A DNA stretch of 64,000 nucleotides from Herbiconiux ginsengi (GTDB taxonomy: Bacteria; Actinomycetota; Actinomycetes; Actinomycetales; Microbacteriaceae). Shown here in pieces: positions 850 to 54,898 of this stretch (the stretch's first letter is position 1; every line of letters begins with the position of its first letter). The position numbers were made by a program, and so were the translations under genes. The notes beneath the pieces were generated by a model, which was not told the origin of the DNA, ran no database searches, and saw only the letters and a list, made by a program, of their open reading frames with translations. The stretch lies in assembly GCF_900107435.1 (NCBI RefSeq), contig NZ_FNPZ01000005.1:1-64000 (forward strand), read 5' to 3'.

Positions 850-2162
850 ATGACAACCCATAGTTCTGCCAGCGCGCCAAGCTCACTCGAGGAGCTGGCG
901 CCGTCCGCGCCAAAACTCTTGAAGCGGGAGCTGGTCGCCCTCTTTCTGGCGCAGTCCACGCTGTACCTGGCCCTCGTCGTCCCCCCAGCTTTTCACTGGC
1001 CATCAAGATCGGGGCGATCGACCCAGTCAACAAGGACACGATCCTGGCCTTGTGCATCGGCATCGGCGGGACACTCATCCTCTTCACGAACCCCATCGCA
1101 GGAGTGCTCAGCGACCGGACTCGATCGCGTTTTGGTCGCAGGCGACCTTGGTTCCTCGGTGGGATGCTCATCGCCCTCGCCGGTTCCGCTCTCGTGGGGC
1201 TTGGAAACGACGCCGTCACCATCGTTGCTGGATGGGCAGTGGCAGTTGTTGGCTACACCCTGAGTACTTCCATGCTTCTCGCGTACCTCGGTGACAGGCT
1301 GCCGGAGGAACAACGCGGGAAGGTCATGGGCATCAACGGCGCGATTACTCAAATCGGTCCGATCGTGGGAATTGTGATTGCTGGTTCTTTCGCCTCGCAG
1401 CTTGGGCTGATGTTCCTCATTCCCGCTGCAATCGCATTTCTCGGACCAGTCTGGTTCCTGGTGTCCATGAGAGACAGCCAATACTCCGGTGCTCTCCCGC
1501 CGTTCCGTTTCAGCGACTTGACGCGAGGGTTCTACTTCAATCCCCGCCGGCACACGAATTTTGGTTGGGTCATCCTGAGCAAGCTTTTCGTGTACGCATC
1601 GCTTGCCTTCGGCGGTCTCTACGGTATCTATTTGCTGCAGGCCCGTCTGGGGCTCGACACAGGCGCGGTCGCCACGCTGATCGCTACAGTGGCGGGTCTC
1701 GGAGTCTTCACTGCGATCATTGGTGCCATTGGCGCCGGTTGGCTCTCAGACAAGTTGCGGTCGCGCAAGCCGTTCCTAATCGCCAGCGGTGTGCTACTCG
1801 TCGCGAGCCCTCTTATTGTCGGAACGACCACGAGCACGTTGCAGTTCATTGTGGGCGGACTAGTTGGGACATTCGCAATCGGAATCTACGGTTCGGTTGA
1901 TCAGGCTCTGGCTCTCGACACCCTCCCGTCCGATGAAAACGAAAACGGGCGCTACCTAGCAATCTTCGGTCTGGCCAATGGGATCCCCCAGGCGTTCGGG
2001 CCCTTCGCGGCGGCCTTTGTTCTTACCTTGGCGGGCGGTGACTACAGCTGGGTCTACTACGTCGCCGCTGCTTTCGCGGCACTCGGAGCCCTAAGCATCA
2101 TCCCGATCAGCGTCGGCAAGCGTGCATCCCTGTCCACCGTCAGCATCGACGCTGTGAGCTAG
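850..2162 (+). pseudogene. MFS/GPH-type glycoside or sugar transporter, frameshifted
   Basis: A twelve-helix major facilitator protein of about 437 residues, probably importing a glycoside. The signature GVLSDRTRSRFGRRRPW sits after TM2. Translation starts at ATG 850, five bases after GGGAG. That frame runs to ALVVPP and then fails, while the continuation (SFSLAIKIGAID) is one frame over and stays open to 2162. The switch is in a run of six C at 981-986; seven C would restore one frame. This is a single-base deletion or a sequencing error. A related but distinct porter lies at 46820-48145. It is followed 109 bp later by GH1, so it was probably the first gene of the cluster A operon. Confidence 0.85.
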
Positions 2163-2271
2163 ACCAACCGGCAAGCCGACAACGCGCGCACACCGCTCCC
2201 TCAACCAGTGACACGAAACCTATGAAGTTGCCTTATCTCAATTCCGACGAGCACACAGAAACGGAGGAACC

Positions 2272-3477
2272 ATGAAGACGTTCAAAAAGAGCTTTCTATG
2301 GGGGGCGGCGACAGCGCCGCATCAGGTCGAAGGCAACAACACCAACAGTGACTGGTGGATGCGCGAGGGCCTGATCCCTGGCATGGAACCCAGTGGCGAT
2401 GCCGTGGACAGCTACCACCGCTACGAAGAGGACATGCAACTGCTGGCCGACGCGGGACTGAACGCGTATCGCTTCGGCATCGAGTGGGCACGCATCGAGC
2501 CGCGCCCCGGGCAGTTCTCACTTGCGGAACTTGCTCACTACCGACGAATGATCGAGACCGCGATCAACTTCGGCTTGACTCCGGTCGTTACGCTTCAGCA
2601 CTTCTCTAATCCCCGGTGGTTCGCTGAGGAGGGGGGCTGGTATGGCCCGCATGCAGTGGAACGCTTTCGGTCATACGTGACCAAAGCCACGACGATCCTC
2701 GATGGCGTGGAATGGGTCGCCACCATCAACGAACCAAACATGCAGGCGATGATGGGAATGATGATGGAGGCCTTCGCATCCGGGCCCGTACCGGACTGGC
2801 AAAGCCCAACCGTCGAAGGTGAGCCGGACGTGGGAGCTCACTCACTGCCGACACCAGAGCCTCGATTCGGCGCTCCGCTGGTGGAGGCACATCACGCGGT
2901 GCGAGACATCATCCGCGAACGTGTCGGCGCAAAAGTGGGCTGGACCGTCGCGAACGGTGCGCTCACAGCAAAGCCCGGGGCTGCGGCGACGCTCATCGAC
3001 ATCCGATATAGAACTGAGGACCTTTACTTAGAAGCTGCGCGCAACGATGACTTCATCGGTGTCCAGTCTTACTCGTCGCAGGAAGTTGACGAGAACGGCC
3101 TTGTGCCCCACCCCGCCCACCCCGACAACACCATGGTCGGCACAAGCTATCGGCCCGATGCGCTCGGCATGGCAGTGCGCCACGCGTGGGAGGTCACTGG
3201 AGGTGTTCCGGTCCTCGTAACGGAAAACGGAATTGCCACAGATGACGATCGACGGCGCATCGCTTACACCTCCGGTGCGTTGACCGGGCTGCAGGCCGCC
3301 ATCGCTGATGGCGTGGACGTGCGCGGCTATCTCCACTGGAGTGCGCTGGACAACTACGAATGGGGGCATTGGGGTCCCACTTTTGGCCTCATCGCCGTCG
3401 ACCGCGCAACATTCGAGCGAACGCCCAAACCGAGCCTTGCGTGGCTAGGCAACATCGCCCTGGACGGGCACCTGTGA
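2272..3477 (+). CDS. Glycoside hydrolase family 1 beta-glucosidase
   Basis: A cytoplasmic retaining beta-glycosidase of 401 residues with no signal peptide. The N-terminus FLWGAATAPHQVEGNN is the family 1 signature. The acid/base is Glu154 in TINEPN and the nucleophile Glu318 in VTENGI. The C-terminal LDNYEWGHW completes the aglycone pocket. It is shorter than typical GH1 enzymes (about 450 residues). ATG 2272 follows GGAGG. It is a paralogue of the GH1 at 40595-41809, sharing long stretches such as LIPGMEPSGDA and VGVQSYSSQEVD. It stands where cluster B has no GH1, directly in front of an MFS remnant, so its position is recombinant. Likely substrates are beta-glucosides or beta-fucosides/galactosides; the sequence does not settle which. 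Confidence 0.93.
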   Translation: MKTFKKSFLWGAATAPHQVEGNNTNSDWWMREGLIPGMEPSGDAVDSYHRYEEDMQLLADAGLNAYRFGIEWARIEPRPGQFSLAELAHYRRMIETAINFGLTPVVTLQHFSNPRWFAEEGGWYGPHAVERFRSYVTKATTILDGVEWVATINEPNMQAMMGMMMEAFASGPVPDWQSPTVEGEPDVGAHSLPTPEPRFGAPLVEAHHAVRDIIRERVGAKVGWTVANGALTAKPGAAATLIDIRYRTEDLYLEAARNDDFIGVQSYSSQEVDENGLVPHPAHPDNTMVGTSYRPDALGMAVRHAWEVTGGVPVLVTENGIATDDDRRRIAYTSGALTGLQAAIADGVDVRGYLHWSALDNYEWGHWGPTFGLIAVDRATFERTPKPSLAWLGNIALDGHL

Positions 3478-3683
3478 TCAGCTCGGTACTGCCAGACAAG
3501 GACCGATTCGGAACAGATCTGGGCGTGCTCAACATCGCTTCCACACTGCCCGGAGTCATTGGACCGGCCATCGCCGGCGTCATCGTCATTGCCTTTGGTG
3601 GGTACCTCGCGATCTACATCGCAGTCGTCGTCATCGCTCTGCTGGGTGCCCTCGCCGTCCTGCCCATCAAGAGTGTGCGCTAA
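3474..3683 (+). pseudogene. 3' remnant of an MFS transporter
   Basis: About 69 codons match the last two transmembrane segments of the MFS porter at 46820-48145: SSVLPDKDRFGTDLGVLNIA here against SSVLPDKERFGTDLGVLNIA there, with both ending PIKSVR. It begins exactly at the GH1 stop (GTGATCAGC; the GTG overlaps the TGA). Everything 5' of this point is missing. In cluster B the intact porter lies directly upstream of GH43, and here the remnant lies directly upstream of GH43. This is therefore a recombination scar left when MFS-GH1 replaced the original porter. Confidence 0.9.
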
Positions 3684-3715
3684 GCGACGCCTCGCACGCT
3701 CAGCCAGTCTTCGCC

Positions 3716-5279: not shown

Positions 5280-7553
5280 ATGACCGACACCTTTGAGATC
5301 GAGGCCGCTGATCTTGTAGCGAGGTTGAGCCTCGCGGAGAAAGCAACGCTAGGGGGTGGGGCATCTTTCTGGGAGTCGGCGCCAGCGCAAGGCGTGCCGA
5401 CGTTCGTTATGTCCGATGGCCCGCACGGACTTCGCAGACAGGAAGGTGACGCGGCTGATCACCTAGGTCTCGGCGCAAGTGTGCCTGCTACCTGCTTTCC
5501 TCCCGCCGTTGGGCTTGGACAGAGTTGGGATCACGATCTCGTTCGCCGTGTTGGCGGGGCACTCGCGCTGGAAGCACAAGACCAAGGCGTGAACGTACTT
5601 CTCGGTCCGGGTATCAACATCAAGAGAGATCCGAGGTGTGGACGCAACTTTGAGTACCTCAGCGAAGACCCGTATCTCACGAGCTTCCTTGCAAGCTCGT
5701 GGGTGAATGGTCTCCAGGCGGGCGGTGTGGGCGCATCACTGAAACACTTCGCCGCGAACAATGCTGAATACGACCGCATGCGGCTGAGTTCAGACGTCGC
5801 GGATCGGCCGCTCCGAGAGATCTACCTACGTGCGTTCGAACGAGTCATCCGTGACGCGCAACCTTGGACCGTGATGTGCTCGTATAACCGCATCAACGGA
5901 GTGCTCGCGTCCCAGAACAAGTGGCTGTTGACGGACGTCCTTCGTCGTGACTGGGGCTTTAAGGGTGCTGTTGTGAGCGACTGGGGTGCGGTCGAAGATC
6001 GTGTGGCCGCTGTTGCCGCGGGCCTGGACCTCCAGATGCCCGGAGGCACGGAGTTCTTCAACGGTGCGGTCGTGGACGCGGTGCTCGAGGGAGAACTGTC
6101 TGAGACCGACGTGGATCGCGCGGCAACTGCAGTGGCTCGTACTTCGCTGCTGGCTCAACATCACGGTCGAGATGTTTCCGTCGACTACGAAGCGCACCAC
6201 GCTCTGGCGCGCGAAGCGGCAGTCCGAAGCATCGTGCTCCTCAAGAATGACGGCAACCTGCTGCCCCTCGAGCCTCACGGACGCATCGCCGTGATCGGTG
6301 CGTTCGCGTCAGCGCCGCGATACCAGGGTGGCGGTAGCTCACATGTCCGAGCCACCCATCTCGACATCCCCCTTTCGGAGATCCGGACTGCGGCTCCTCG
6401 GGCGACCGTGGAGTACGCACTCGGATTCACAACTGATGGATCCGGTGACGCGGCTGCTCTGCGACTTGAGGCAGCGCAGCGGGCACACGACTCCGACATC
6501 GCAATCGTCTTCCTGGGGCTCGCTGAGGCGCACGAATCTGAAGGGTTCGATCGCGAGACGATCGACCTGCCCCCAGAACAGCTGGCTGTTCTCGAAGCGG
6601 TCGCTGCGGAGCAACCAAATACCGTCGTTGTTCTCTCAGCCGGCGGCATTGTGCACCTCGCCCCCGTGCATCAGCTCGCACCGGCCATTCTATCTGGCGG
6701 CCTCCTTGGTCAGGGCGGAGGCGCCGCGATTGCGGATGTGCTCTTTGGGGCAGTGAACCCGTCAGGACGTTTGGCGGAGACCGTGCCTCTTCGTTTGCAA
6801 GATGCGCCCAGCTACCTCCAATTTCCGGGTGAGCACTCCCGCGTCGTGTACGGTGAAGGACTGTTCGTTGGCTACAGGGGTTACGACGCCCGCGCGCAAG
6901 ACGTCCTCTACCCCTTTGGACACGGACTGTCCTACACGGACTTCTCCTTCGATGCTCTGGCGGTCGAAGGGGACCAGGACGGAATCGCTATCGCTGTCAG
7001 CGTCCAAAACCTCGGCCCGGTCGCCGGGCGGGAGATCGTCCAGATCTATGCCTCGAAGGTGGATTCGGCCGTAAGTCGAGCCCCTCGCGAGCTGGTCGGT
7101 GTTTCTGTCGTCGAGGTGGAGCCCGGAGACAGCGTCACCGTGCATATTCGGGTGGATCGACGAGACCTGGCGTACTGGGATGACCGCTTCAACCGATGGA
7201 TCGTCGAGGACGGCGTCTATCGCGTTGCCGCCGCGAAGTCCAGTCGCGACATTCAGCTTGAATCCCTCGTTGAAGTCGTCGGCGACGTCGATCGCAGCGT
7301 CTTCACGCCGAACTCGACTGTTGCTGAACTGATGTCGAACCCCGCCGCCTCGCCCATCGCGATGGCAGCGTTCGGTGGACTGATGCCCTCCGCCGACGCT
7401 GGCGCAGAACTGGGGATGGACGTGATGAAGATGGTTGCATCGATGCCATTGAATCGGCTCATCACCGGAACTCCCGAGGCAGAAGGGCAACTTGGAGCGC
7501 TCCTCGAAGCTGTCAACTCCGCTGCTACGGCTCCCAGTGCCGACAACAACTAA
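5280..7553 (+). CDS. Glycoside hydrolase family 3 beta-glucosidase/beta-xylosidase
   Basis: A retaining exo-glycosidase of 757 residues, probably cytoplasmic. The (alpha/beta)8 domain carries KHFAANNAEYDR and the nucleophile Asp234 in VVSDWGAV. A second alpha/beta sandwich contains QGGGSSHV. A fibronectin-III-like domain (about 560-680) begins after the PFGHGLSYTDF motif, and a tail of about 80 residues contains DVMKMVASMPLNRL. ATG 5280 has AGGAG upstream. It is nearly collinear with the IS-interrupted GH3 at 41887-45228, whose reconstructed length is also 757, and a third homologue lies at 50244. It is 37 bp upstream of the SDR. Confidence 0.93.
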   Translation: MTDTFEIEAADLVARLSLAEKATLGGGASFWESAPAQGVPTFVMSDGPHGLRRQEGDAADHLGLGASVPATCFPPAVGLGQSWDHDLVRRVGGALALEAQDQGVNVLLGPGINIKRDPRCGRNFEYLSEDPYLTSFLASSWVNGLQAGGVGASLKHFAANNAEYDRMRLSSDVADRPLREIYLRAFERVIRDAQPWTVMCSYNRINGVLASQNKWLLTDVLRRDWGFKGAVVSDWGAVEDRVAAVAAGLDLQMPGGTEFFNGAVVDAVLEGELSETDVDRAATAVARTSLLAQHHGRDVSVDYEAHHALAREAAVRSIVLLKNDGNLLPLEPHGRIAVIGAFASAPRYQGGGSSHVRATHLDIPLSEIRTAAPRATVEYALGFTTDGSGDAAALRLEAAQRAHDSDIAIVFLGLAEAHESEGFDRETIDLPPEQLAVLEAVAAEQPNTVVVLSAGGIVHLAPVHQLAPAILSGGLLGQGGGAAIADVLFGAVNPSGRLAETVPLRLQDAPSYLQFPGEHSRVVYGEGLFVGYRGYDARAQDVLYPFGHGLSYTDFSFDALAVEGDQDGIAIAVSVQNLGPVAGREIVQIYASKVDSAVSRAPRELVGVSVVEVEPGDSVTVHIRVDRRDLAYWDDRFNRWIVEDGVYRVAAAKSSRDIQLESLVEVVGDVDRSVFTPNSTVAELMSNPAASPIAMAAFGGLMPSADAGAELGMDVMKMVASMPLNRLITGTPEAEGQLGALLEAVNSAATAPSADNN

Positions 7554-7589: not shown

Positions 7590-8492
7590 ATGACGGAACG
7601 ATTGACTGGAAAGACCGCCCTCGTCACGGGTGGAGGCAACGGCGTCGGCAAGGCTGTGGCGCTTGCACTCGCAGCTCAAGGCGCTCGGGTCGTTGTCAAC
7701 GACCTGGGCACAAGCGAACAAGCCGAGGGAGTCAGTCGTGGCGCGGCCGACATCACTGTAGAAGAGATCCATGCCGCAGGTGGCGAGGCCGTCGCGAGCT
7801 ACGATTCGGTCGCGACCGCGGAAGGCGTGCAGAACGCCGTGGCGATTGCCGAATCGGCCTTCGGTCCAGTTGACATCGTCGTGGCGTGCGCGGGCGCCAT
7901 CTTCCCGGGAGACCTGTCCGCGACCGATGAGACATGGCACCGCTTCATCGATCTGTTCCTCTCCCAGAAGTTCTTCCTCGCACGCGCAACCGTTCCCGGA
8001 ATGGCAGAGCGCGGATGGGGACGGTTCATCACAGTCACCTCTGAAGGCGCTCGCGGAACTCTGGGTAACCCGATCTTCGCCGCAGCAATGGGCGGCGTAA
8101 TCTCTCTCACGAAAGCGATCGCGAATGACTACCGCGCGCACGGTGTCACCGCCAACAGCTTCAACCCCGCAGCTGCCACTCGCCTGTACCACGCGACGAT
8201 CGCCGACTGGAAGGTCAAACACGACGCGGGAGAGATCACAGACGAGATGTGGGCAGCCATTGAGGCGGGTCCGGGTCCGGCCAGCTACGTCGCACCGATG
8301 GTCACTTGGCTGACCACGGATGCGGCGGCGAAGACGACCGGCCAGGTCTTCACCATTGGCGGTGGCTCGGTCACACGGTGGTCATCGTTCGAGCAAGTAC
8401 GGAGCATCTACAAGGGCGATCATAGATCCACGCCCGAATGGTCTTTGGACGAGCTCGACCAGACCGTTCCTACCGGCCTCTTTGAAAACTAG
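7590..8492 (+). CDS. Short-chain dehydrogenase/reductase lacking the Tyr and Lys of the active site
   Basis: A classical-fold SDR of 300 residues. The dinucleotide motif is TGGGNGVGK (residues 14-21) and VVVNDLG follows beta-2, as in the SDR domain of multifunctional beta-oxidation proteins. Ser151 (VTSEGARG) is in place, but the YxxxK positions read F163 and M167 (PIFAAAMGG). Canonical hydride-transfer chemistry is therefore doubtful. The SDR at 59426 is its closest relative in the window and has the same loss. It is 37 bp after GH3 in the glycosidase operon. It may oxidise an aglycone or a sugar with altered chemistry, or serve a non-redox role (inference). ATG 7590 follows AAAGGA. Confidence 0.85.
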   Translation: MTERLTGKTALVTGGGNGVGKAVALALAAQGARVVVNDLGTSEQAEGVSRGAADITVEEIHAAGGEAVASYDSVATAEGVQNAVAIAESAFGPVDIVVACAGAIFPGDLSATDETWHRFIDLFLSQKFFLARATVPGMAERGWGRFITVTSEGARGTLGNPIFAAAMGGVISLTKAIANDYRAHGVTANSFNPAAATRLYHATIADWKVKHDAGEITDEMWAAIEAGPGPASYVAPMVTWLTTDAAAKTTGQVFTIGGGSVTRWSSFEQVRSIYKGDHRSTPEWSLDELDQTVPTGLFEN

Positions 8493-8536
8493 CCGCCGGC
8501 CGCCGGCTCCATTGCCGCCGAACCAAGGACTCTCCG

Positions 8537-8668
8537 TTGTCGCGATTTCCTGCCAACATCCTCTGGGGTGCATCCGCGCCACCGCATCAGACCGAGGGGA
8601 ACAACGTCAACAGTGATGGGAGGGCGCGGGAAGGAGTGATTCCGGGGATGGAGCCGAGCGGCGACGGC
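8537..8668 (+). pseudogene. 5' remnant of a GH1 beta-glucosidase
   Basis: TTG 8537 opens a frame of about 44 codons matching the N-terminus of the GH1 at 40595-41809: PHQTEGNNVNSD is identical and VIPGMEPSGD nearly so. Similarity stops abruptly after SGD, and one of the two conserved Trp of DWW reads G. The following 220 bp to the next gene contain no recognisable domain. In cluster B a full GH1 follows GH3, so this is the residue of the ancestral downstream GH1. Confidence 0.85.
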
Positions 8669-8888
8669 AATCGACGAGGACGCCCTCGCGGACGTGCTCA
8701 CGTCGATTGCCGTCTCCGCTCTCTCGACGGGGTCATTCTCAGCCCCCCACGCCGCGCATTTCAGCGTCGAGCCGCTGGGGAGACCTACTCGAAGTCTTAC
8801 GACGAAGTGCACAGAGCTCTCAGCGGTGTCCCCCTCACAAATGTTGTCAACGCCCCCACGCTCGCCACGATTTGATCCCGGAGCCCTA

Positions 8889-9698: not shown

Positions 9699-10319
9699 GC
9701 AAGACGAGACCGCAGTGGCTCGGTAGCGGTGACCGATTCGCGCGCTTGAAGCGCATCCAGACGCTCGATCCCGAAGTCGACTACCGCGAAATCACCGAAC
9801 TGTTCTACACCGATTTCCAGTCCGTGATGGTCGTGCAAGGCGTCTCCGGCTTTCTCTTTACCTTCGCCGCTCCTCGAATGTCGCGGATCCTCAAGGCAAG
9901 CGGACAAGCTGAGCATCACACCGCTAAACGATTCGTCGACACGAGCCTCCTCACCGGAGCCGTCATGTCCCACGGCCTGGAGCCCGGGGAAGGCAGGCAC
10001 GCCGCCCGACGCGTAAACGCAATGCACAGACACTACGACATCCATCCCGACGACTTCATCGCCGTCGGGTGCGATGTTCCCATCATGTCGCTCGAACTCG
10101 CCGACAGGTTTGGATGGAGGCCGGTCACCGACACGGAACGCCGCGGCGTGTTAACCCACTACGCGAAAGAAGCCCGCGCGTTCGGCTCACACAAGCCCAT
10201 CCCTGACACGATCGAAGAGGCGCGTGCGTTCTGGGAGAACTATCTCGACACCGAACTCGCGTTCGAGCCGCAGAACAAGGAACTCGCCGACGCGCTGCTG
10301 CAATTCATGCCGACACTAG
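9695..10319 (+). pseudogene. MpaB/DUF2236-family oxygenase-like protein, truncated by an IS
   Basis: About 208 codons of a DUF2236 protein (relatives include the rubber oxygenase Lcp and fungal MpaB, histidine-ligated heme enzymes). Visible segments are GVSGFLFTFAAPRMSR, HRHYDIHPDDFIA and RRGVLTHYAKEARAFG. The frame enters the IS5-family element at CTAG 10316-10319 and stops at 10333 inside it. Without the element and one CTAG, the frame would continue from 11297 through ERWMVKPFGYAC to a TGA at 11368-11370. I cannot tell whether those 24 codons are native. It overlaps the SDR stop (ATGAG). Confidence 0.72.
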
Positions 10320-10420
10320 GGCGTGTCTCCTAATAGGTGTTGCCAGGTGAGGATGGCGCGGAGGGTGACGCCAGCGCGGTATGTGATGGCGAGTTTGTCG
10401 TACCTGGTGGCGATGCCTCG

Positions 10421-11246: not shown

Positions 11247-11344
11247 CCGACCAGACTGCCGCGAGCTTCACCGAACATATGGGAGACACGCCCTAGTTGG
11301 CTCAGCCCGGATGCGATTTGAGGTGAGTTCCGAGCGTTGGATGG

Positions 11345-46819: not shown

Positions 46820-48145
46820 CTAGCGCACGCTCTTGATCGGCATGACTGCTAGGGCTCCGAGCAGGGCGATGACAACCACAGCGACGTAAATCGCGAGATA
46901 CCCACCGAACACAAGCACGATGACTCCAGCGACTGCTGGACCGATGACTCCGGGCAGGGTCGACGCGATGTTGAGCACTCCGAGGTCTGTTCCGAATCTC
47001 TCCTTGTCCGGCAACACCGAGCTGATTAGGGCTTGGTCGACCGCGATGAACGTTCCAAATCCAAGTCCGACGAACACAGCGGAGACGATCATCCCCGGCA
47101 CGGATGGCATCAAGATCGGCACTAGCGCGGCGAGGGCGATGACAAGGCCGCCTGCGAGCACGAGTGGCTTTCGACGTCCGATTCGGTCTGAGAGCGGACC
47201 AGAAATGGCCGTGGAGATCAGGATCGTAGGCAGTGTAGCGAGCCCGAGGAGAGGAGCCAGTTGCAACGACTCTTCGACCGGGACGCCGATGTAGTCCTGA
47301 AGTATGTAGAGGGAGTAGGTGTTGAGGAGGCTGAATCCGCCAAACAGAAGGAACCTTCCCAGAAACCCCCAGAAGAAGTCGGGATGTTTGATCGGGCTGA
47401 CCCAGAAGGCTTTGAGGAACGCGAGCACGTTAAAGGGCTGCCGGTGTTCTCCACGATTGTCTCGGTCCTTGACCGCGACGACGAACCAGATGGTGAGCAG
47501 AAGTACGGCACCCGCTATAGACGTATATCCAAGGGGGATGTTCTTCACGAAGAAGGATCCGATGATTCCTCCGAGGACGCCTGCAAGCAAAGTCCCCAGT
47601 CCGACGAGAGTCGAGTAGCGACCCCTGAACCTAACGGGCACCCGGTCAGGGAGAATTGCCGTGAAGGGCGCGCCCATGGCGTTGAATCCGAACTGTACAA
47701 AAACTACTGCAATGGTGAGCGCCGCGATCGAGGGAGCTAGACCGGCTGTAATCATGGCCACCGAGCCAATGACAGCACCCACCAGAATCCAGGGCCTGCG
47801 AGCGCCGAATCGAGTTCGAGTCCGGTCAGTTAGAACGCCGGCGAGGGGCATCGCAAGCATTGCAGCAAAGGCGGAAATGGCGCTAATTGTCGCGAGCGCG
47901 CCTACCTTTCCGGCGTCGTCGATCTGCTGCGCCTGAACTGCCGCGAAGTAGTTCGTCGCGCTGAATGCCAGAAATGGAACCGCGGCAACGAAGGGGGCAA
48001 AGCGGAACAGAGGGCGAAGCTCTCTTGGAAGTTTCTCTTTGGTCTGTTGGCCCATCTTCATCGCCTCTCCAGGCCCGGCCGGAATGGAAGAGGTCAACGG
48101 GGTGATGGGTTCAGATGACCTGTTCGGTCGTTGGGTGGGCTCCAT
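46820..48145 (-). CDS. MFS/GPH-type sugar or glycoside transporter (cluster B)
   Basis: About 441 residues with twelve predicted helices and a long cytoplasmic N-terminus. GVLTDRTRTRFGARRPWILV is the loop 2-3 signature, and SGPLSDRIGRRKPLVLAGG lies in the second half. The last 69 residues match the remnant at 3474-3683. ATG 48145 follows GAGAAAGAAG; GTG 48184 is open but has no ribosome site. First gene of the cluster B operon. An upstream inverted pair AAACCGAC (48185) / GTCGGTTT (48231) may be regulatory. Confidence 0.88.
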   Translation of the reverse strand: MEPTQRPNRSSEPITPLTSSIPAGPGEAMKMGQQTKEKLPRELRPLFRFAPFVAAVPFLAFSATNYFAAVQAQQIDDAGKVGALATISAISAFAAMLAMPLAGVLTDRTRTRFGARRPWILVGAVIGSVAMITAGLAPSIAALTIAVVFVQFGFNAMGAPFTAILPDRVPVRFRGRYSTLVGLGTLLAGVLGGIIGSFFVKNIPLGYTSIAGAVLLLTIWFVVAVKDRDNRGEHRQPFNVLAFLKAFWVSPIKHPDFFWGFLGRFLLFGGFSLLNTYSLYILQDYIGVPVEESLQLAPLLGLATLPTILISTAISGPLSDRIGRRKPLVLAGGLVIALAALVPILMPSVPGMIVSAVFVGLGFGTFIAVDQALISSVLPDKERFGTDLGVLNIASTLPGVIGPAVAGVIVLVFGGYLAIYVAVVVIALLGALAVMPIKSVR

Positions 48146-48473
48146 TGCCGCTTCTTTCTCGAGTAGTGCGGGATGAGATGACACAAACCGACGCAGTGGC
48201 GGTTTCCGCTTGGTGAGAAACCATACTTGAGTCGGTTTCTTGGCGCAAGTGGCATTTGTTCAGAGATCGAGTTGCTCGTTCGTCACGCGGAGCGGACGCA
48301 CACGTTCACCGATTGGTGACCGTAGGACGCTCGCGCATCGCCGAAGTGTTGGCGAAGAGCAGCCGCCCGGCCACACTCAAGGACAGGCGCCATCGCCGAG
48401 TTGCGACTCGTCTGGTACGGGGAGGACCGAGTATTGTGATCGCCACGGTCGCGCATCAGCCTTCAGTGTCGAG

Positions 48474-49082
48474 TCAGTCCCGTCCGCCTTGGTTCGGCTG
48501 AATAGCAATAGCCTCAAAGAAGTCACCGATCAGTTCAGCCATATCTATACTCGGGTCATACAGCCAGCGGATCTGCAAACCATCTTGCAATGCGGCGAGA
48601 ATAACCGCGAATTTATCAGGATCTAAGGTCGCGGCGAGTCGCCCGCTTGATTGCATGTCTGCGAGCAGGGCAGATGAAGCAGCCTTGTTCTGCTGATACC
48701 TGTCCGCGAAAAACTCGTGTGCGGGGTTAGCTGGGTCGGTCGCCTCCGCCGAGAGCCGAGCAAAGAGCTGCACCAGCCCTGGAACCTTTGCGTTCTCGCG
48801 AATAAGGTTCGCGATAAACTCCGCGGGGTCAACCGATGGCGACTCTCGCTGTTGAACCCATGCATCCGTGACGAGGTCGTCGCGCCTCCGAAGAACCTCA
48901 GCGAAGAGCTCTTCCTTCTTGTGAAAGTGATGCAGCAACCCAGCCCTACTGAGGTTTGCTGCTTCAGCGACCTCGCCGATCGTCGCGCCGTTGTACCCGT
49001 GCTCCGCTACCACCTGCAACGCAACATCAACCAACTCGGCCTGTTTGGCGACACCCTTGGGGTACTTGCTATTCGGACGCAT
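48474..49082 (-). CDS. TetR-family regulator of glycosidase cluster B
   Basis: 202 residues. The HTH is GATIGEVAEAANLSRAGLLHHFHKK, with LQIRWLYDPSIDMAELIGDF near the C-terminus. It is a paralogue of the cluster A regulator at 100-735 and of the scrap at 11650. It is divergent from the Gfo/Idh-GH3-GH2 operon and upstream of the MFS-GH43-GH3-GH1 operon, so it could repress both. About 290 bp between it and the MFS start contain no gene. Confidence 0.9.
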   Translation of the reverse strand: MRPNSKYPKGVAKQAELVDVALQVVAEHGYNGATIGEVAEAANLSRAGLLHHFHKKEELFAEVLRRRDDLVTDAWVQQRESPSVDPAEFIANLIRENAKVPGLVQLFARLSAEATDPANPAHEFFADRYQQNKAASSALLADMQSSGRLAATLDPDKFAVILAALQDGLQIRWLYDPSIDMAELIGDFFEAIAIQPNQGGRD

Positions 49083-49110
49083 GGCTAGATGATATCTGTC
49101 TTGCCAAGAG

Positions 49111-49170
49111 ATACCGATCGAGGTATGGTTTCAGCACCCGTTCAAAACAAACTGTGTGCTGGTTTGTTTT
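49111..49170. promoter_or_regulatory. Two inverted repeats between TetR and the Gfo/Idh gene
   Basis: ATACC-N6-GGTAT (49111-49126) resembles a TetR operator. AAAACAAAC-N9-GTTTGTTTT (49144-49152 and 49162-49170) is a second, perfect 9-bp repeat, 22 bp before the start of the Gfo/Idh gene, and ends in a T-run. Either could be the operator, and the second could also form an attenuator hairpin. Confidence 0.5.
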
Positions 49171-49191
49171 TTTAACACAGGAGTTCCGGCG

Positions 49192-50241
49192 ATGGTGCCA
49201 CGAAACGATGTCGGCGCGACCAACGAGGATCCCACCGTACAATCACTACGAATTGGCATACTCGGGGCGGCGCGAATCACGAAGATCGCGCTCATTGACC
49301 CCGCACTCTCGACGCCGGCTGTCGAGATATCCGCTATTGCGGCGCGAAACCGGGACCGTGCATCCCGTTTTGCGCGAGATCACAACATCGGTCGCGTCCA
49401 CGACAACTACTCCGCCCTCCTGAGGGACCCTGACATTGATGCCGTTTACATTCCCCTCCCGGCCTCCGCGCATGCCGAGTGGACGCTCGCCGCGATCGCA
49501 GCAGGGAAGCATGTGCTATGCGAAAAGCCGTTCACTGCTAACGCAGTCCAAGCCGAAAAAGTCGCATCAATCGCCGCCAAGAGCGAATTCGTAGTGATGG
49601 AGGCCTACCACACGGGCCATCACCCCATGATGGGACAACTTCGGCAATACCTGTCCGCCGGCACCCTCGGCGAGGTAGTGAGTGCACATGCGAACTTCGC
49701 GGTTGCCATCCCACCCGGAACAGATATCCGCTGGAATGCCGATCTCGGAGGCGGCGGACTGCTCGACGTCGGTTACTACCCAGTCAGGCTCTTACGCGAC
49801 TTGTTTGGCGAGGCAAAGGTGGCCCAGGCACGCGCGCGCGACCGGCAGGGCATAGATTCCTCTCTCACCGCACGCCTGGAGTTCGCCGGCGGCGTGCGCG
49901 GCCAGGTCGCCTGTTCGCTGTGGCCCCCAAGGCCTGCGTTCCCTTCGCTGACCATCACCGGCTCGCTGGGAACGTTGCGTGTTCGTATGCCCTACCACCC
50001 GCAAACTGCGGGCCTCATCAAGTTCACATCCAAAAGTCACCGGTGGTCGGTCCGTCCAGCCCGCACGTCTACTTACGTCGCACAGTTGACGGCTTTCCGC
50101 GACGCAGCGCTCCGCGGCGGGCCAAATATCACTGATGCACCCGCCGCCGTGCGTCAAATGCGAACGATCGACGAAATCTACCAAGCGGCCGGCATGAATC
50201 CGCGTTGCTACTCCACCCCACCAGTCTCTCGAGAGGACTAA
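49192..50241 (+). CDS. Gfo/Idh/MocA-family NAD(P)-dependent oxidoreductase
   Basis: 349 residues. Rossmann start RIGILGAARITKIALIDPAL, then the catalytic Lys in HVLCEKPFTANAVQAEKV and MEAYHTGHHPMM. DLGGGGLLDVGYYPVRLLRD is the (beta)-sheet domain block. Relatives include xylose and dihydrodiol dehydrogenases. It may oxidise a released sugar, or the C3 position of a glycosyl residue. ATG 49192 follows CAGGAG. It is two bases ahead of GH3, in one operon with GH3 and GH2. Confidence 0.88.
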   Translation: MVPRNDVGATNEDPTVQSLRIGILGAARITKIALIDPALSTPAVEISAIAARNRDRASRFARDHNIGRVHDNYSALLRDPDIDAVYIPLPASAHAEWTLAAIAAGKHVLCEKPFTANAVQAEKVASIAAKSEFVVMEAYHTGHHPMMGQLRQYLSAGTLGEVVSAHANFAVAIPPGTDIRWNADLGGGGLLDVGYYPVRLLRDLFGEAKVAQARARDRQGIDSSLTARLEFAGGVRGQVACSLWPPRPAFPSLTITGSLGTLRVRMPYHPQTAGLIKFTSKSHRWSVRPARTSTYVAQLTAFRDAALRGGPNITDAPAAVRQMRTIDEIYQAAGMNPRCYSTPPVSRED

Positions 50242-50243
50242 CA

Positions 50244-52466
50244 ATGACAACCACACCCTCACTCACACTCGCGGAGAAGGCCAGCCTCGGCAGTGGCGCA
50301 GACTTCTGGTCCACCAAAGCCCTCCGGGGCATCCCTTCCGTCTACCTCACCGATGGCCCGCACGGAGTTCGCAAACAGGGGGACGCTGTCGATCATCTCG
50401 GAGTCTCCATGAGCGTCCCCGCAACCTGCTTCCCCCCTGCCGCGGGACTGAGTCAATGTTGGAACAGCGATCTGGTCAGGCAGGTCGGCGCAGCGCTCGG
50501 GCGAGAAGCACGAGCGCTCGGCGTCCATGTCCTGCTCGGCCCAGGTATCAACATCAAGCGACACCCACTAGGCGGACGCAACTTTGAGTACTTCTCGGAG
50601 GACCCAATCCTTACTGGAGTGCTTGGTAGCGCTTGGGTTGACGGGATCCAGAGCGAGGGTGTTGGGGCATCCCTCAAGCACTTCGCAGCGAATAATCAGG
50701 AGAGCGATCGGCACCGAATAAGCTCCGACATCGACCCCCGCACTCTGCGGGAGGTTTACCTGCGCGCATTCCAGCGAGTGGTTGAGGTTTCAAAGCCCTG
50801 GACCGTCATGTGCTCATACAACCGAGTCAACAACATTCCCGCGTCTGAGAGCGCATTCCTGCTCACACGGGTACTTCGAGATGACTGGAAGTTCGACGGC
50901 GTGGTCGTCAGCGATTGGGGCGCGGTCTCTGATCGGGTCGCGGCCGCTCGCGCCGGACTCGACCTAGAAATGCCCGCCGCCGAGGGTAGCGACGACAAGC
51001 TACTAGACGCCGCGATGGACGGTTCGCTCAGTTCGGCAGTCCTGGACAGAATCGCGGAACGGGTCACAGCCCTTGCTCGGAAGGCGCGACTCAATGTGGG
51101 TCGCGAGAACGCAGTCGACTTCGACGCGAATCACGCGCTCGCGCGTGACGCGGCGACGCAGAGCATCGTGTTGCTGCGAAACAACAACGGTCTCCTCCCC
51201 CTAACTCCGGGCCAGTCGATTGCCGTAATCGGTGAAGCTGCGAGAACACCTCGTTTCCAGGGCGGCGGCAGTTCCTTCGTCAATGCCAAGCGCGTCGATA
51301 GCCCGCTGGACGAGATCCGACGAATCGGTGGTATTGATTCAATCGTTTTCGCTGAGGGCTACGCCAGCGGGGACAGCATCTCGAGCGGCGAGTTGATTGA
51401 GGAAGCAGTCGAGGCAGCGCGCGAGGCCGAGGTAGCAGTGCTATTCCTCGCCGCACCGCTGGAATCCGAAGGGATCGATCGCAAAGACCTCGAACTCCCC
51501 GCAGATCAGATTGCGCTAGCCCGGGCCGTACTTGACGCCAACAGCAACACAATCGTTGTTCTCGCCCGGGGTGGGGCAGTCCGAGTTGGAACGTTGGGCC
51601 CGATCCCGGCGATCCTCGATGGTGCGCTACTAGGTCAAGGAATCGGCAGAGCAATCGCAGATGTCATCTTTGGGATCACGAGTCCGTCTGGACGGCTGTC
51701 GGAAACTGTTCCCCTGCGGCTCGAAGACACGCCAGCATTCGGCGCCTTTCCTGGCGAGCATGGGCACGCCCTATACGGAGAGGGCCTTCTGGTTGGGTAC
51801 CGTTGGTACGACACACGAAAAATGGATGTCGAGTACCCATTCGGCCACGGATTGTCCTATACAACCTTCGCTTACTCCGAACTCCAACTCGCGGTCACCG
51901 ATGAAGGCATAACCGCCACGGTGGTAGTCACCAACACAGGTGACCAGGCAGGGCGTGAGGTCCCCCAGTTCTACGTATCCGTCTCGGATTCCGAAGTTAC
52001 GCGTCCCGCCCAAGAACTCAAAGCGTTTGACAATGTGTTCCTCGAAGTAGGCGAATCCAAAGCCGTACAGGTGCTTCTTCGCCGCGGGGATCTCGCTTAT
52101 TGGGACGTGCGAGGCGATAGGTGGACGCTAGAGAGCGGCGAATATATCGTCTCCGTCGGAGCGTCCAGCCGCGATATCCGAGCCCAATCAACGGTCCTCG
52201 TCGAAGGCGACTTTGTATTCGTCGAGCTGACTATGCACTCGACAATTGGCGAACTGCTAGCGAACCCGGTGACCAAGAGTGCTATCGCTAACGCACTCAC
52301 CACAGCTTTCGGACCTACCGACAACCCGGCCGTGGGTGGAAATGTGGTGCAGATGATCTCGCCAAGCCCACTCCACTCCGTTATTGGATTGCTGGGTGAG
52401 GCACTTGACGTAGACAAGTTCCAAGTCCTCCTCGCAACCGCGAACTCACAAGAGGTCGAGGGCTAA
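50244..52466 (+). CDS. Glycoside hydrolase family 3 enzyme (third copy)
   Basis: 740 residues. KHFAANNQESDRHRIS, nucleophile Asp224 in VVSDWGAV, QGGGSSFVNAKR in the second domain and YPFGHGLSYTTF before the fibronectin-III-like domain. The tail of about 75 residues (STIGELLANP) corresponds to those of the other two GH3s but is more diverged. ATG 50244 is two bases after the Gfo/Idh stop. Differences near the substrate pocket (GGRNFEYFSED, GHRIS region) suggest a different glycosidic linkage from 5280-7553. Confidence 0.92.
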   Translation: MTTTPSLTLAEKASLGSGADFWSTKALRGIPSVYLTDGPHGVRKQGDAVDHLGVSMSVPATCFPPAAGLSQCWNSDLVRQVGAALGREARALGVHVLLGPGINIKRHPLGGRNFEYFSEDPILTGVLGSAWVDGIQSEGVGASLKHFAANNQESDRHRISSDIDPRTLREVYLRAFQRVVEVSKPWTVMCSYNRVNNIPASESAFLLTRVLRDDWKFDGVVVSDWGAVSDRVAAARAGLDLEMPAAEGSDDKLLDAAMDGSLSSAVLDRIAERVTALARKARLNVGRENAVDFDANHALARDAATQSIVLLRNNNGLLPLTPGQSIAVIGEAARTPRFQGGGSSFVNAKRVDSPLDEIRRIGGIDSIVFAEGYASGDSISSGELIEEAVEAAREAEVAVLFLAAPLESEGIDRKDLELPADQIALARAVLDANSNTIVVLARGGAVRVGTLGPIPAILDGALLGQGIGRAIADVIFGITSPSGRLSETVPLRLEDTPAFGAFPGEHGHALYGEGLLVGYRWYDTRKMDVEYPFGHGLSYTTFAYSELQLAVTDEGITATVVVTNTGDQAGREVPQFYVSVSDSEVTRPAQELKAFDNVFLEVGESKAVQVLLRRGDLAYWDVRGDRWTLESGEYIVSVGASSRDIRAQSTVLVEGDFVFVELTMHSTIGELLANPVTKSAIANALTTAFGPTDNPAVGGNVVQMISPSPLHSVIGLLGEALDVDKFQVLLATANSQEVEG

Positions 52467-52471
52467 ATATT

Positions 52472-54898
52472 ATGCGATCTGTATCCTTGAACACGCATTG
52501 GTTCGTTTCCCCGAAGCGGGGATTGTTCGATGGGATGAACCCAACCATCGCACCGCCGGTCGGGGTGACCCTGCCACATGATGCGATGGTGTCCCTCCCC
52601 CGAAGCGCTCAAGCCGCGTCAGCTGAACACAGCGGCTATTTTCCAGGCGGCGCGGTCGAGTACACGCGAGAGCTTAATCTCGACACGGAAGAAGCGGCAA
52701 ATGTTCACTATTTAGTCCTCGATGGGGTCTACCGCGACGCCATGGTTTACGTCAATGACCATTTCGCAGCACAGCGCCCTGCCGGCTACTCACGGTTCGT
52801 AGTGAACCTCGACCCATTTCTGCGACTCGGGGACTCGAATGAACTTCGAATCGAGGCACGAGCCCACCGGGATTCGAGATGGTACTCGGGACTCGGAGTC
52901 CACAGAAGCGTTCACTTACTCACAGGACCACGGATCCACATAGCGGTCGATGGAGTGCGGGTATGCACCCCTGATATTGATGACGCTGGCACCCTCGTGG
53001 AAGTGGCAACCACGATCGTCAACGAGTCGTCACACACTCAAACCACAACCTGCCATGTCGCGATCCGTAATCCTCGCGGCGAAATCATCGCAACCGACCA
53101 GGTGCCAATCACGTTGATCGCCGGTGAGTCGGGAGTTGCGAGGAAGCGAATTTGGATCGCAGCACCAGAACGCTGGAGCATTGATAGCCCCGCCCTCTAT
53201 CGAGCTGAAGTCTCGATAGGCGAAGGTCCCGAGAATGACTCCGTCTCCACCACGTTCGGTGTCAGAACTCTTCAGCTCGATTCGCGGCACGGTCTTCGAA
53301 TCAACGGCGACACGGTGAAACTGCGCGGCGCCTGCATCCATCACGACAACGGTGTCCTGGGAGCGCGCTCCATCGCACGTGCCGAAGAACGACGCATTGA
53401 GATCCTCAAATCCGCTGGCTTCAATGCCATTCGCAGCGCGCACAATCCATTGAGTCCAGACCTTCTCGACGCCTGCGACAGATTAGGCATGGTGGTACTG
53501 GACGAGGCGTTCGATATGTGGGCAGAAGCAAAATCCGCGTTCGACTACTCACTCGCCTTTCCAGAGTGGTGGGAGCGCGACATCGAATCGATGGTTGCAA
53601 AGGATTTCAACCACCCCTCCGTAGTGTTTTATTCGATCGGTAACGAGATTCCTGAAACCGGACGCACACATGGCGCTCGGCAAGGCCGACTCTTGGCGGA
53701 CAAAGTGCGGTCTCTCGATCCGTCACGCTTTACGACCAACGGCATCAACCCTCTCGTCTCAGTCGTAAAAGAGCTACCCGCACTCGCCGGCCACGGCGAC
53801 GCCAACCGTGACGTAAACGAAACGATGGCCGAAATGGGGTCCTTGATGGACGCGCTGGTCACCTCCGACTTGGTCACGGCGCGTACTGAGGAGAGCTTCG
53901 GGGCAGTTGACGCTGCTGGCTTGAATTATGGCGATAGCCGGTATGTTTCTGATGGCAGCACATTTCCACACCGCGTCATCATCGGCACCGAGACTTTCTC
54001 GACGCGCGTCCAGGATGCTTGGCCCACGATCCTGGCCAACGATCACATCGTCGGCGAGTTCACATGGACTGGATGGGACTACCTGGGCGAAGCAGGAATC
54101 GGCCGGGTCGAGTACACAAAAGAAGGTGGAGCACTGGCAGGCACGTCAGGAGCATTCCCCTGGCAACTGGCATGGTGCGGAGACATTGACATCACCGGTC
54201 ACCGGCGCCCATCGTCTTATTTCAGGGAGATCGTGTTTGGCCTGCGAGCCCAGCCATACATCGCGGTGCTGCGGCCGCGAGCCGACGGACTTCTACCCTC
54301 CGCTGGACCGTGGTCTTGGACTGACAGCATCTCTTCATGGACTTGGTCGTGCGATCCAGGAACGATAGTGTCCGTCGACGTCTATAGCGACGCCGAGACT
54401 GTGGAACTGTTTTTGAACGGAACGTCTCTAGGATCTGTTCCAGCGGGATTGGCTCACGGATTTGTTGCCAGGTTCGACGTTCCTTATGGGGTCGGAGAGC
54501 TCCGCGCCGTCGCATCTTCCGGAGGCATCGAGACGGGACGATCAATCCTGCGGTCCGCCGTCGGGGAGGTTGCCCTCGCGGTCGAAGCCGAACGGGCCGA
54601 AATCCGAGCAACTCCGGACGATCTGGCCTACGTAAATATCATCCTGGTGGATGGCAACGGCGTGCCCTGGCCCGAATCGGATCGGAAGGTTGAGGTGGTC
54701 GTGGATGGACCAGGAGAACTCATTGCCTTGGGTAGCGCCAACCCGAAGACAATCGAGTCCTACCTTGACTCATCACACACCACATTTGACGGCCGCTCTC
54801 AAGCCGTCGTGCGCCCCACAGGCGCAGGCACGATCGTCATCACTGTGAGCGCCGAAGGGCTAGCGTCGCGCAGTATCACGGTGACGTCTCATGAGTGA
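52472..54898 (+). CDS. Glycoside hydrolase family 2 beta-galactosidase-type enzyme
   Basis: 808 residues. The N-terminal sugar-binding jelly roll contains WYSGLGVHRSVHL, followed by an immunoglobulin-like domain. The TIM barrel has RSAHNPLSPDLLDACDRLGM, the acid/base Glu in SIGNEIPETGR and the nucleophile in IIGTETFSTR. C-terminal Ig-like domains (VELFLNGTSLG, DGNGVPWPESDRKV) are as in DUF4982-type members. Likely a beta-galactosidase; beta-glucuronidase is the alternative. It starts five bases after the GH3 stop and ends the operon. Confidence 0.9.
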   Translation: MRSVSLNTHWFVSPKRGLFDGMNPTIAPPVGVTLPHDAMVSLPRSAQAASAEHSGYFPGGAVEYTRELNLDTEEAANVHYLVLDGVYRDAMVYVNDHFAAQRPAGYSRFVVNLDPFLRLGDSNELRIEARAHRDSRWYSGLGVHRSVHLLTGPRIHIAVDGVRVCTPDIDDAGTLVEVATTIVNESSHTQTTTCHVAIRNPRGEIIATDQVPITLIAGESGVARKRIWIAAPERWSIDSPALYRAEVSIGEGPENDSVSTTFGVRTLQLDSRHGLRINGDTVKLRGACIHHDNGVLGARSIARAEERRIEILKSAGFNAIRSAHNPLSPDLLDACDRLGMVVLDEAFDMWAEAKSAFDYSLAFPEWWERDIESMVAKDFNHPSVVFYSIGNEIPETGRTHGARQGRLLADKVRSLDPSRFTTNGINPLVSVVKELPALAGHGDANRDVNETMAEMGSLMDALVTSDLVTARTEESFGAVDAAGLNYGDSRYVSDGSTFPHRVIIGTETFSTRVQDAWPTILANDHIVGEFTWTGWDYLGEAGIGRVEYTKEGGALAGTSGAFPWQLAWCGDIDITGHRRPSSYFREIVFGLRAQPYIAVLRPRADGLLPSAGPWSWTDSISSWTWSCDPGTIVSVDVYSDAETVELFLNGTSLGSVPAGLAHGFVARFDVPYGVGELRAVASSGGIETGRSILRSAVGEVALAVEAERAEIRATPDDLAYVNIILVDGNGVPWPESDRKVEVVVDGPGELIALGSANPKTIESYLDSSHTTFDGRSQAVVRPTGAGTIVITVSAEGLASRSITVTSHE

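What the first reader, a model, noticed from the sequence alone, without database searches (positions are those of the whole stretch)
850..54898. Two paralogous glycosidase clusters, each partly inactivated, with an intact set only when combined
Cluster B reads MFS-GH43-GH3-GH1 beside a TetR gene. Cluster A reads TetR / MFS-GH1-[MFS scrap]-GH43-GH3-SDR-[GH1 scrap]-SDR. The two scraps sit exactly where cluster B has the intact MFS and GH1. In B, GH3 is split by an IS and GH43 is frameshifted; in A, the first MFS is frameshifted. Functional GH43 and GH3 thus come from A, and the functional porter comes from B.
Basis: seen in the sequence. Interest (0 to 1): 0.7.

Follow-up and report, generated by a model that had tools for sequence, protein, structure and literature searches.

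The report
Two decaying copies of sugar-cleaving operon
A probable soil-bacterium plasmid carries two old, damaged copies of an operon for importing and cutting up plant-type sugar compounds, one of them fused to a different operon, and between them they still hold a full set of unbroken genes; a relative has its copies of these genes spread over two places in a similar way, so this looks like ordinary purging of spare parts, neatly caught in the act.

Summary
Clusters A (~100-9700) and B (40595-49082) share an anciently diverged block MFS-GH43-GH3-GH1 (~73% DNA identity). The "scraps" are the last 68 codons of the B-type MFS and the first ~43 codons of the B-type GH1. B's GH43 is frameshifted and its GH3 cut by an IS with a 4-bp target duplication; A's first MFS is frameshifted.

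The interpretation needs changing. A looks like a fusion of two cluster types: a TetR/MFS1-GH1 unit (TetR and MFS1 orthologues in a same-genus genome) joined to a truncated MFS2-GH43-GH3-SDR-GH1 unit. A lost the two genes (MFS2, GH1-II) for which its other half has equivalents, and has no TetR_B operator. A keeps intact GH1, GH43, GH3 and SDR frames, so only a porter must come from elsewhere.

Microbacterium rhizomatis, the only other genome found with a GH43 over 60% identical, keeps an intact MFS2 at one locus and its GH43/GH3 at another beside a differently broken MFS2 remnant. So the porter beside GH43 was lost at least twice.

The contig appears to be a ~219-kb circular plasmid; A lies between inverted IS5-family copies. 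Expression, transport and substrate are untested. A clear evolutionary snapshot of known gene families, not a new system.

The parts
1..95 (-). End of an IS5-family element (copy 2); rest lies beyond the contig start
   Evidence: Exact reverse complement of 10316-10410
100..861 (-). TetR_A regulator (true start probably further in, ~720)
   Evidence: Pfam TetR_N 4.4e-10 from residue 71; 53% to the TetR in same-genus L117
850..2162 (+). MFS1, frameshifted at a C run 981-986
   Evidence: 62% to the L117 MFS; clade with L117, G418 and M. rhizomatis MFS1, 100/99
2272..3477 (+). GH1 (type I partner), intact frame; stop codon formed at the joint
   Evidence: Pfam GH1 2.7e-55; NEP at 153 and TENG at 317
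3478..3683 (+). MFS2 remnant: residues 387-454 of the MFS_B type
   Evidence: dN/dS 0.045 against MFS_B over 68 codons
3780..5240 (+). GH43, intact frame
   Evidence: Pfam GH43 1.5e-26; closest solved chain TerARA arabinofuranosidase/xylosidase 9no3, 2.1e-121
5280..7553 (+). GH3, intact frame
   Evidence: Pfam GH3 N and C domains; closest solved chain 8j9f beta-glucosidase, 5.4e-204
7590..8492 (+). SDR1, intact frame; absent between GH3 and GH1 of B, present in M. rhizomatis (84%)
8521..8668 (+). GH1-II remnant, first ~43 codons
   Evidence: 33 of 43 residues as in GH1_B, 32 of 43 as in M. rhizomatis GH1, 27 of 43 as in GH1_A
8656..8714 (.). Quasi-palindrome at break point 2 (perfect 14-nt arms 8663-8676 / 8701-8714)
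   Evidence: Self-match 82% over 61 columns; arms; fold -52.5 kcal/mol for 8640-8730
8886..9698 (+). SDR2; no sign that it belongs to either ancestral cluster
   Evidence: Pfam SDR; at E<=1e-40 only 2 of 119 genomes match, the own and one at 51%
9695..10333 (+). MpaB/Lcp-type oxygenase, 3' end cut by the IS5 element
   Evidence: Pfam 2.6e-15; longer 77% paralogue at C6:74766-75368
10316..11296 (+). IS5-family element, copy 1
   Evidence: 85% over full length to the IS5 element of a Microbacterium sediminis plasmid; DDE_Tnp_1
40595..41809 (-). GH1-II of B, intact frame
   Evidence: Pfam GH1 5.8e-57; NEP/TENG; clade with M. rhizomatis GH1 100/99
41887..45228 (-). GH3 of B, interrupted
   Evidence: dN/dS 0.048 and 0.129 against A for the two parts
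42349..43412 (+). IS481-type element inside GH3, CTAG at 42345-42348 and 43413-43416
   Evidence: no near-identical copy elsewhere in the assembly, next best 67%
45291..46737 (-). GH43 of B, frameshifted at ~46277-46278
   Evidence: both halves constrained
46820..48184 (-). MFS2, intact porter frame (MFS/sugar-symporter type)
   Evidence: Pfam MFS_1 4.9e-35, MFS_2 1.1e-14; 83% to M. rhizomatis C4:36689-38029
48185..48239 (-). Two palindromic operator-like boxes (48185-48206, 48217-48239) upstream of MFS2
   Evidence: counterparts at both M. rhizomatis loci
48474..49082 (-). TetR_B regulator
   Evidence: Pfam TetR_N 1.5e-13; 74% to the M. rhizomatis locus 2 TetR
49110..49132 (+). Third operator-like box (4 mismatches) between TetR_B and GFO_B
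49156..54898 (+). GFO/IDH/MocA oxidoreductase, GH3b and GH2, intact frames; divergent partner operon of B
   Evidence: 63%, 71% and 70% to M. rhizomatis locus 2

Best explanation
This is a glycoside-uptake and deglycosylation regulon in two partly redundant copies on a probable ~219-kb plasmid, caught while redundancy is being purged. Ancestral unit II was probably TetR_B / operator-MFS2-GH43-GH3-(SDR1)-GH1, with a divergent GFO-GH3b-GH2 operon. MFS2 would import an oligoglycoside; GH43 (arabinofuranosidase/xylosidase-like), GH3 and GH1 (beta-glucosidase-like), which show no evident signal peptide by eye, would trim it inside the cell, and SDRs would act on the freed part. Copy B kept this layout. 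Copy A is a fusion: non-homologous joining placed a truncated unit II behind the GH1 of a different unit, TetR_A/MFS1-GH1, so GH43-GH3-SDR1 lost the TetR_B operator and probably came under the MFS1 promoter. The genes A lost (MFS2, GH1-II) are those its other half duplicates. B has since lost GH43 (frameshift) and GH3 (IS), and MFS1 of A was frameshifted. As it stands, MFS2 is intact only in B, and GH43 and GH3-II only in A. Shown: homology, joints, lesions in this assembly, intact frames, operator-like boxes, a similar layout in M. rhizomatis. Inferred: order of events, promoter takeover, transport and substrate, and that the two loci cooperate.
For: A/B homology and joints. Both remnants carry few amino-acid changes for their silent divergence (dN/dS 0.045 over 68 codons; 0.074 over 42), so they were probably genes for most of the time since A and B parted. 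TetR/MFS1 orthologues with their own GH3-SDR-GH1 in same-genus G003. GH1_A outside the GH1-II clade, 100/99; the GH1 remnant is nearer GH1_B (33 of 43) than GH1_A (27 of 43); MFS1 and MFS2 in separate clades. M. rhizomatis: locus 1 = operator boxes, MFS2 remnant (residues 1-46 and 407-454), GH43-GH3-SDR1-GH1; locus 2 = TetR-MFS2-MFS1-GFO-GH3b-GFO-GH2; one GH43 match there at E<=1e-20. The A remnant (387-454) keeps residues that the M. rhizomatis deletion lacks, so the losses are independent. Operator box: 3 mismatches at the intact M. rhizomatis MFS2 and 4 at TetR_B/GFO_B, besides the two sites it was derived from; best in bases 1-12500 is 7; no hit at <=4 mismatches in 30 simulated 218-kb sequences.
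Against: GH1_A is not shown to be the orthologue of the GH1 in G003 (that fork is unresolved), so unit I is tied to G003 by TetR and MFS1 only, and G003 has GH3-SDR between MFS and GH1. GH1_A's nearest place in the tree is next to the GH1-II clade (83/88), so it could be an early duplicate of GH1-II. In M. rhizomatis locus 2 no GH43 or GH1 remnant was found, so there only MFS2 may have been copied, and the parallel is then weaker than two decaying whole operons. Pairwise dN/dS averages both lineages over few codons and near-saturated silent sites; the GH1 remnant already differs at two residues that its four aligned relatives share (WW). The MFS1 lesion lies in a homopolymer run and could be a sequencing fault; then A would be self-sufficient. 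The operator motif was derived from the B site and the M. rhizomatis remnant site, so only one of the two hits in C6 is independent. Cooperation and activity are not shown; other MFS genes exist (17833-19113).
Confidence: 0.66

Rival explanations
1. A is self-sufficient: the MFS1 frameshift is a sequencing or assembly fault, and B is simply a dying spare copy with no complementation between loci.
For: The lesion is in a run of C; the remaining frame is open and matches its relatives, with dN/dS 0.245 against G003.
Against: Both contig ends overlap an internal repeat by 95 bases, which points to a k-mer short-read assembly, where such homopolymer faults are rare (inference). Two separate lesions in B argue that decay is real there.
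Confidence: 0.2
2. A descends from a tandem duplication of unit II followed by deletion (a circular permutation GH1 | MFS2 tail-GH43-GH3-SDR1-GH1 head), not from a fusion with a foreign unit.
For: GH1_A falls next to the GH1-II clade with modest support (83/88), and the order GH1 | MFS2-GH43-GH3-GH1 is what such a permutation would leave.
Against: The GH1 remnant is nearer to GH1_B and M. rhizomatis GH1 (33 and 32 of 43) than to GH1_A (27 of 43), GH1_A is outside that clade (100/99), and TetR_A/MFS1 upstream have orthologues in G003. A recent tandem duplication would leave near-identical GH1 copies.
Confidence: 0.15
3. The two clusters serve different substrates; the resemblance of the losses is coincidence and neither needs the other.
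For: Separate regulators (34% identical) and no TetR_B-type box in A (best 7 mismatches).
Against: M. rhizomatis keeps the same gene set with intact MFS2, GH43 and GH3.
Confidence: 0.25

Closest known systems
Microbacterium rhizomatis JCM 30598, contig NZ_VYSA01000004 (about 15859-23316 and 35770-46957 of the contig)
   Same: Same gene families; 69-84% protein identity for locus 1 genes and 63-83% for most of locus 2; operator-like boxes; MFS2 remnant before GH43, intact MFS2 at another locus
   Different: GH43, GH3, SDR1 and GH1 stand together with open frames; MFS1 is only 57% to MFS_A and sits behind MFS2; no fusion with a TetR_A; MFS2 deletion has other end points
Type I cluster of same-genus genome G003 (L117: TetR / MFS-GH3-SDR-GH1)
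   Same: TetR (53%) and MFS1 (62%) match A; GH1 70%
   Different: Has its own GH3 and SDR; no GH43 or MFS2 remnant seen in the stretch fetched
Glycoalkaloid trisaccharide clusters of Arthrobacter sp. S41 and Glutamicibacter halophytocola S2 (PMC9597252 and PMC10653915, passages read)
   Same: Actinobacterial clusters of several glycosidases that strip a plant glycoside
   Different: GH2, GH3 and GH78 there; here GH43, GH3 and GH1. Substrate here unknown
Streptomyces griseus SGR_2426 (GH1 beta-glucosidase for beta-1,2-linked glucose, PMC12369401, passages read) and BGL167 of Microbacterium sp. Gsoil167 (4R27)
   Same: Among the best three distinct matches of GH1_A in the sequence search of solved structures (SGR_2426 first, 4r27 third)
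   Different: SGR_2426 sits in an ABC-transporter/GH193 cluster; specificity of GH1_A untested

Membership tests
Glycoside-utilisation cluster (MFS porter + glycosidases + TetR) | Porter, glycosidases and regulator adjacent, porter and glycosidases co-oriented | tested here: met
Glycoside-utilisation cluster (MFS porter + glycosidases + TetR) | All members intact in one cluster | tested here: not met
   MFS1 broken in A; GH43 and GH3 broken in B
Glycoside-utilisation cluster (MFS porter + glycosidases + TetR) | Activity on, and induction by, one glycoside | not testable with these tools
   No expression or enzyme data
Complementary degeneration of duplicated operons | Homologous copies each lacking functions that the other keeps | tested here: met
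   MFS2 intact only in B; GH43 and GH3-II intact only in A
Complementary degeneration of duplicated operons | Both copies now needed | not testable with these tools
   Needs deletions and growth tests
Composite transposon | Same IS on both sides of the passenger genes | tested here: inconclusive
   Copy at 10316-11296; of the second, inverted copy only 95 bases are seen at the contig start and 95 at the contig end
Composite transposon | Target duplication at the outer ends or movement as a unit | tested here: inconclusive
   Both IS ends read CTAG, so a duplication cannot be told from the IS end
Plasmid | Partition genes | tested here: met
   ParA at C6:88573-89103 and a ParB_N protein at C6:93213-94643; ParA 67.8% to that of a 214,750-base Cnuibacter plasmid
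Plasmid | Circular molecule apart from the chromosome | tested here: inconclusive
   Contig ends join through the IS; circularity is inferred, not seen in reads

The most novel reading that the evidence does not exclude
Splitting of one glycoside regulon into a 'porter locus' and a 'hydrolase locus' is a repeatable outcome in this group: two lineages independently destroyed the porter copy beside GH43-GH3 and kept the porter elsewhere. In the window's genome the hydrolase half was also moved to a new regulator by operon fusion, so that porter and hydrolases now answer to different signals.
Probability: 0.38. Interest if true: 0.5.

Novelty: new member of a known kind. Interest (0 to 1): 0.36.

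Why it matters
It is a readable case of how bacterial operons are rebuilt. The remnants show which genes were cut, protein-level constraint suggests it happened late, the operator-like boxes show which regulator was probably lost, and a second genome shows a like outcome by another deletion. It would make a testable small model of redundancy purging and regulatory rewiring on plasmids. The enzymes themselves are ordinary members of GH1, GH3, GH43 and GH2.

Tried and rejected
Rejected: the view that A and B are duplicates of a single order (different TetR and MFS kinds, GH1_A outside the GH1-II clade). Rejected: a shared ancestral loss of MFS2 in A and M. rhizomatis (the remnants have incompatible end points). 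Not accepted: break point 2 as a clean deletion into the next gene of the M. rhizomatis cluster; a 31-base match at 87% (E 0.07) to the start of that gene is suggestive only. No source was found for the 8661-8890 stretch beyond itself and short weak matches, among the loci then held and contig C6. Plasmid records: best GH43 relative 50.5% (54 records matched); the 12.5-kb A stretch matched 5 records, all in the IS only. Seven paper searches (species name; saponin/plasmid clusters; operon fusion; ginsenoside; glycoalkaloid; complementary loss; Microbacterium GH1) listed nothing on this locus; I saw listings and abstract starts (up to the number of rows asked for), and passages of PMC9597252, PMC10653915 and PMC12369401 only. 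No structure prediction, fold search, Rfam, PADLOC, PHROGs or NCBIfam search was run, and viral and metagenome contigs were not scanned.

Counts and dropped rows: tree rows with matches under 370 (GH1) or 300 (MFS) columns and repeated sequences were left out; gap and stop marks were deleted from the tblastn rows used. The dS values between A and B are high or saturated, so dN/dS is rough. An earlier count gave the MFS1 frameshift as ~956-961; the right place is 981-986. On re-checking, the statement that the GH1 remnant is of the B type was tested, the identity limits for GH43 in other genomes were corrected, the absence of GH43/GH1 remnants in M. rhizomatis locus 2 was added, and two odds were lowered slightly for that.
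Full report
What was checked. The window is bases 1-64000 of contig C6 (218,015 bases) of a genome of 4,853,715 bases in 12 contigs. Clusters A and B share kilobases of homologous DNA in opposite orientation. GH43 and GH3 are collinear at about 73% DNA identity. A's MFS scrap is residues 387-454 of the B porter, and A's GH1 scrap is the first ~43 codons of GH1.

The joints. At 3477/3478 the end of GH1 runs straight into the MFS interior; the GH1 stop codon is formed there, and the protein ends slightly short of GH1_B. At ~8666-8668 the GH1 remnant ends in a quasi-palindrome with perfect 14-nt arms at 8663-8676 and 8701-8714. The two sides of joint 1 are not homologous to each other, and no clear partner was found for the far side of joint 2, so illegitimate joining is the simplest reading (inference).

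Not one order, but two. MFS1 (A) and MFS2 (B) are 31% identical, TetR_A and TetR_B 34%. In same-genus genome G003 a TetR (53% to TetR_A) stands divergent from an MFS (62% to MFS1), followed by GH3, SDR and a GH1 (70%). MFS1 falls in a clade of 6 rows (four genomes: own, G003, G418, M. rhizomatis; 100/99), apart from MFS2 (32 rows, 30 different). GH1_B and the M. rhizomatis GH1 form a clade (100/99) that excludes GH1_A; GH1_A's own place next to it is weak (83/88) and G003's GH1 is unresolved (30 rows, 29 different). The short GH1 remnant agrees with GH1_B at 33 of 43 residues, with M. rhizomatis GH1 at 32 of 43 and with GH1_A at 27 of 43. So A reads as a TetR_A/MFS1-GH1 unit plus a truncated MFS2-GH43-GH3-SDR1-GH1-II unit.

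The ancestral form of unit II. A pattern-based scan of the collection of 84,980 species genomes with GH43_A gave 39 loci; M. rhizomatis (73%) was first and the next was 58%. Among 199 relatives, 39 had some match at E<=1e-3, the best outside the own genome being 55% over residues 5-412. Among 398 genomes of the family, 6 had a match at E<=1e-20: the own, and five whose longest matches were 48% or less and whose short ones (up to 132 residues) reached 55%. Among 295 genomes of the genus of M. rhizomatis, 6 had a match at E<=1e-20; M. rhizomatis at 73%, the others at 55% or less. In M. rhizomatis, locus 1 reads operator boxes, MFS2 remnant, GH43, GH3, SDR1, GH1, SDR. The remnant keeps residues 1-46 and 407-454, not in one frame. 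About 12 kb away, locus 2 reads TetR (74%), MFS2 (83% to MFS_B), MFS1 (57% to MFS_A), GFO (63%), GH3b (71%), GFO, GH2 (70%). One GH43 match was found in that genome at E<=1e-20. So M. rhizomatis too has its intact MFS2 at one locus and GH43-GH3 at the other. Against a full parallel: no GH43 or GH1 remnant was found in locus 2 at E<=0.01, so there MFS2 alone may have been copied. The A remnant contains residues 387-406, which the M. rhizomatis deletion lacks, so the porter loss beside GH43 happened separately in each.

Timing. Over the 68 codons of the MFS remnant dN/dS against MFS_B is 0.045; over 42 codons of the GH1 remnant 0.074; the parts of B's broken GH43 and GH3 give 0.061, 0.048 and 0.129 against A, and the GH43 5' part has saturated dS and pN/pS 0.082. 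For comparison, intact GH1_A against GH1_B gives 0.096 and MFS1 against G003 0.245. The genes were therefore probably under selection for most of the time since A and B parted, and the damage is recent by comparison. Pairwise values average both lineages and silent sites are near saturation, so no date is given. The GH1 remnant has lost a WW pair that its four aligned relatives share, a sign of decay.

Regulation. A palindromic box (GAAACCGACTnAAGTATGGTTTC) was derived from the site upstream of MFS2 in B (48217-48239) and the site upstream of the M. rhizomatis remnant. It recurs with 3 mismatches upstream of the intact M. rhizomatis MFS2 and with 4 between TetR_B and GFO_B at 49110-49132. In contig C6 there are 2 hits at <=4 mismatches, one of them the founding site, against none in 30 simulated sequences of the same length and dinucleotide make-up. 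The best match in bases 1-12500 has 7 mismatches and lies at 11657, outside the cluster. It is most likely the TetR_B operator (inference), which A lacks.

Replicon. C6 begins with 95 bases and ends with 95 bases that are exact copies of the two ends of the IS5-family element at 10316-11296, in the order and orientation that would close the contig into a circle through a second, inverted copy; the other matches in the assembly are short or 69-89%. C6 has ParA and ParB-type genes, the ParA being 67.8% identical to one on a 214,750-base Cnuibacter plasmid. A plasmid of about 218.8 kb is inferred. Cluster A, with SDR2 and a truncated MpaB-type gene, thus probably sits between inverted IS5 copies and could have moved or inverted as a unit; outer target duplications cannot be judged, because the IS ends themselves read CTAG.

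Function. GH43_A is closest among solved chains to TerARA, an arabinofuranosidase/xylosidase; GH3_A to beta-glucosidases; GH1_A to SGR_2426, with BGL167 (4R27) next but one in the list, SGR_2426 being reported as specific for beta-1,2-linked glucose (PMC12369401, passages read). GH1_A and GH1_B keep the NEP and TENG motifs (motif roles recalled). The N-termini show no evident signal peptide by eye (no predictor run), which fits hydrolysis inside the cell after import (inference). Of the other window ORFs scanned, several are catabolic: GMC oxidoreductase, alpha/beta-hydrolase, CoA transferase, thiolase, carboxylase, a P450 piece and a probable ferredoxin reductase, so a glycosylated terpenoid or steroid is a fair guess at the substrate; this is untested. 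That M. rhizomatis comes from ginseng is recalled, not read.

Verdict. A alone lacks only a working porter. The like layout in M. rhizomatis is the most interesting part. All gene families and processes involved are known.

Noticed in passing
window 1-95 and 10316-11296; C6:217921-218015: IS5-family element whose ends coincide with both ends of the contig; the contig would close to a circle, and the 10.2-kb A segment may lie in either orientation.
   Followed up: yes
window 8656-8714: Strong quasi-palindrome at the GH1 break point; origin unexplained.
   Followed up: partly
window 9695-10333 and C6:74766-75368: Two MpaB/Lcp-type oxygenase genes, 77% identical; the first is cut at its 3' end by the IS5 element.
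   Followed up: partly
window 1-10000 and 40001-56000 against 10001-40000: Both cluster regions are lower in G+C (0.57-0.63) than most of the DNA between them (0.60-0.69), as if acquired from elsewhere.
   Followed up: no
window 14087-39328: Catabolic genes between the clusters (10 ORFs scanned): alpha/beta-hydrolase, GMC oxidoreductase, MFS, acyl-CoA synthetase type, zinc alcohol dehydrogenases, thiolase, CoA transferase, biotin carboxylase, PYC/OADA-type protein.
   Followed up: no
window 56232-57407, 62310-63677, 63515-64000: FAD-binding monooxygenase type, probable ferredoxin reductase, and the end of a P450 (runs past the window end).
   Followed up: no
L163 10124-12203 (M. rhizomatis contig 7): A third MFS2-type porter (60-62%) divergent from a TetR_B-type regulator (67%).
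   Followed up: no
G000 contigs C8 and C10: Each has its own ParA-type gene, so further plasmids are possible; C8:24550 and C6:102248 both lie in 448-aa frames matched over the same profile stretch.
   Followed up: no
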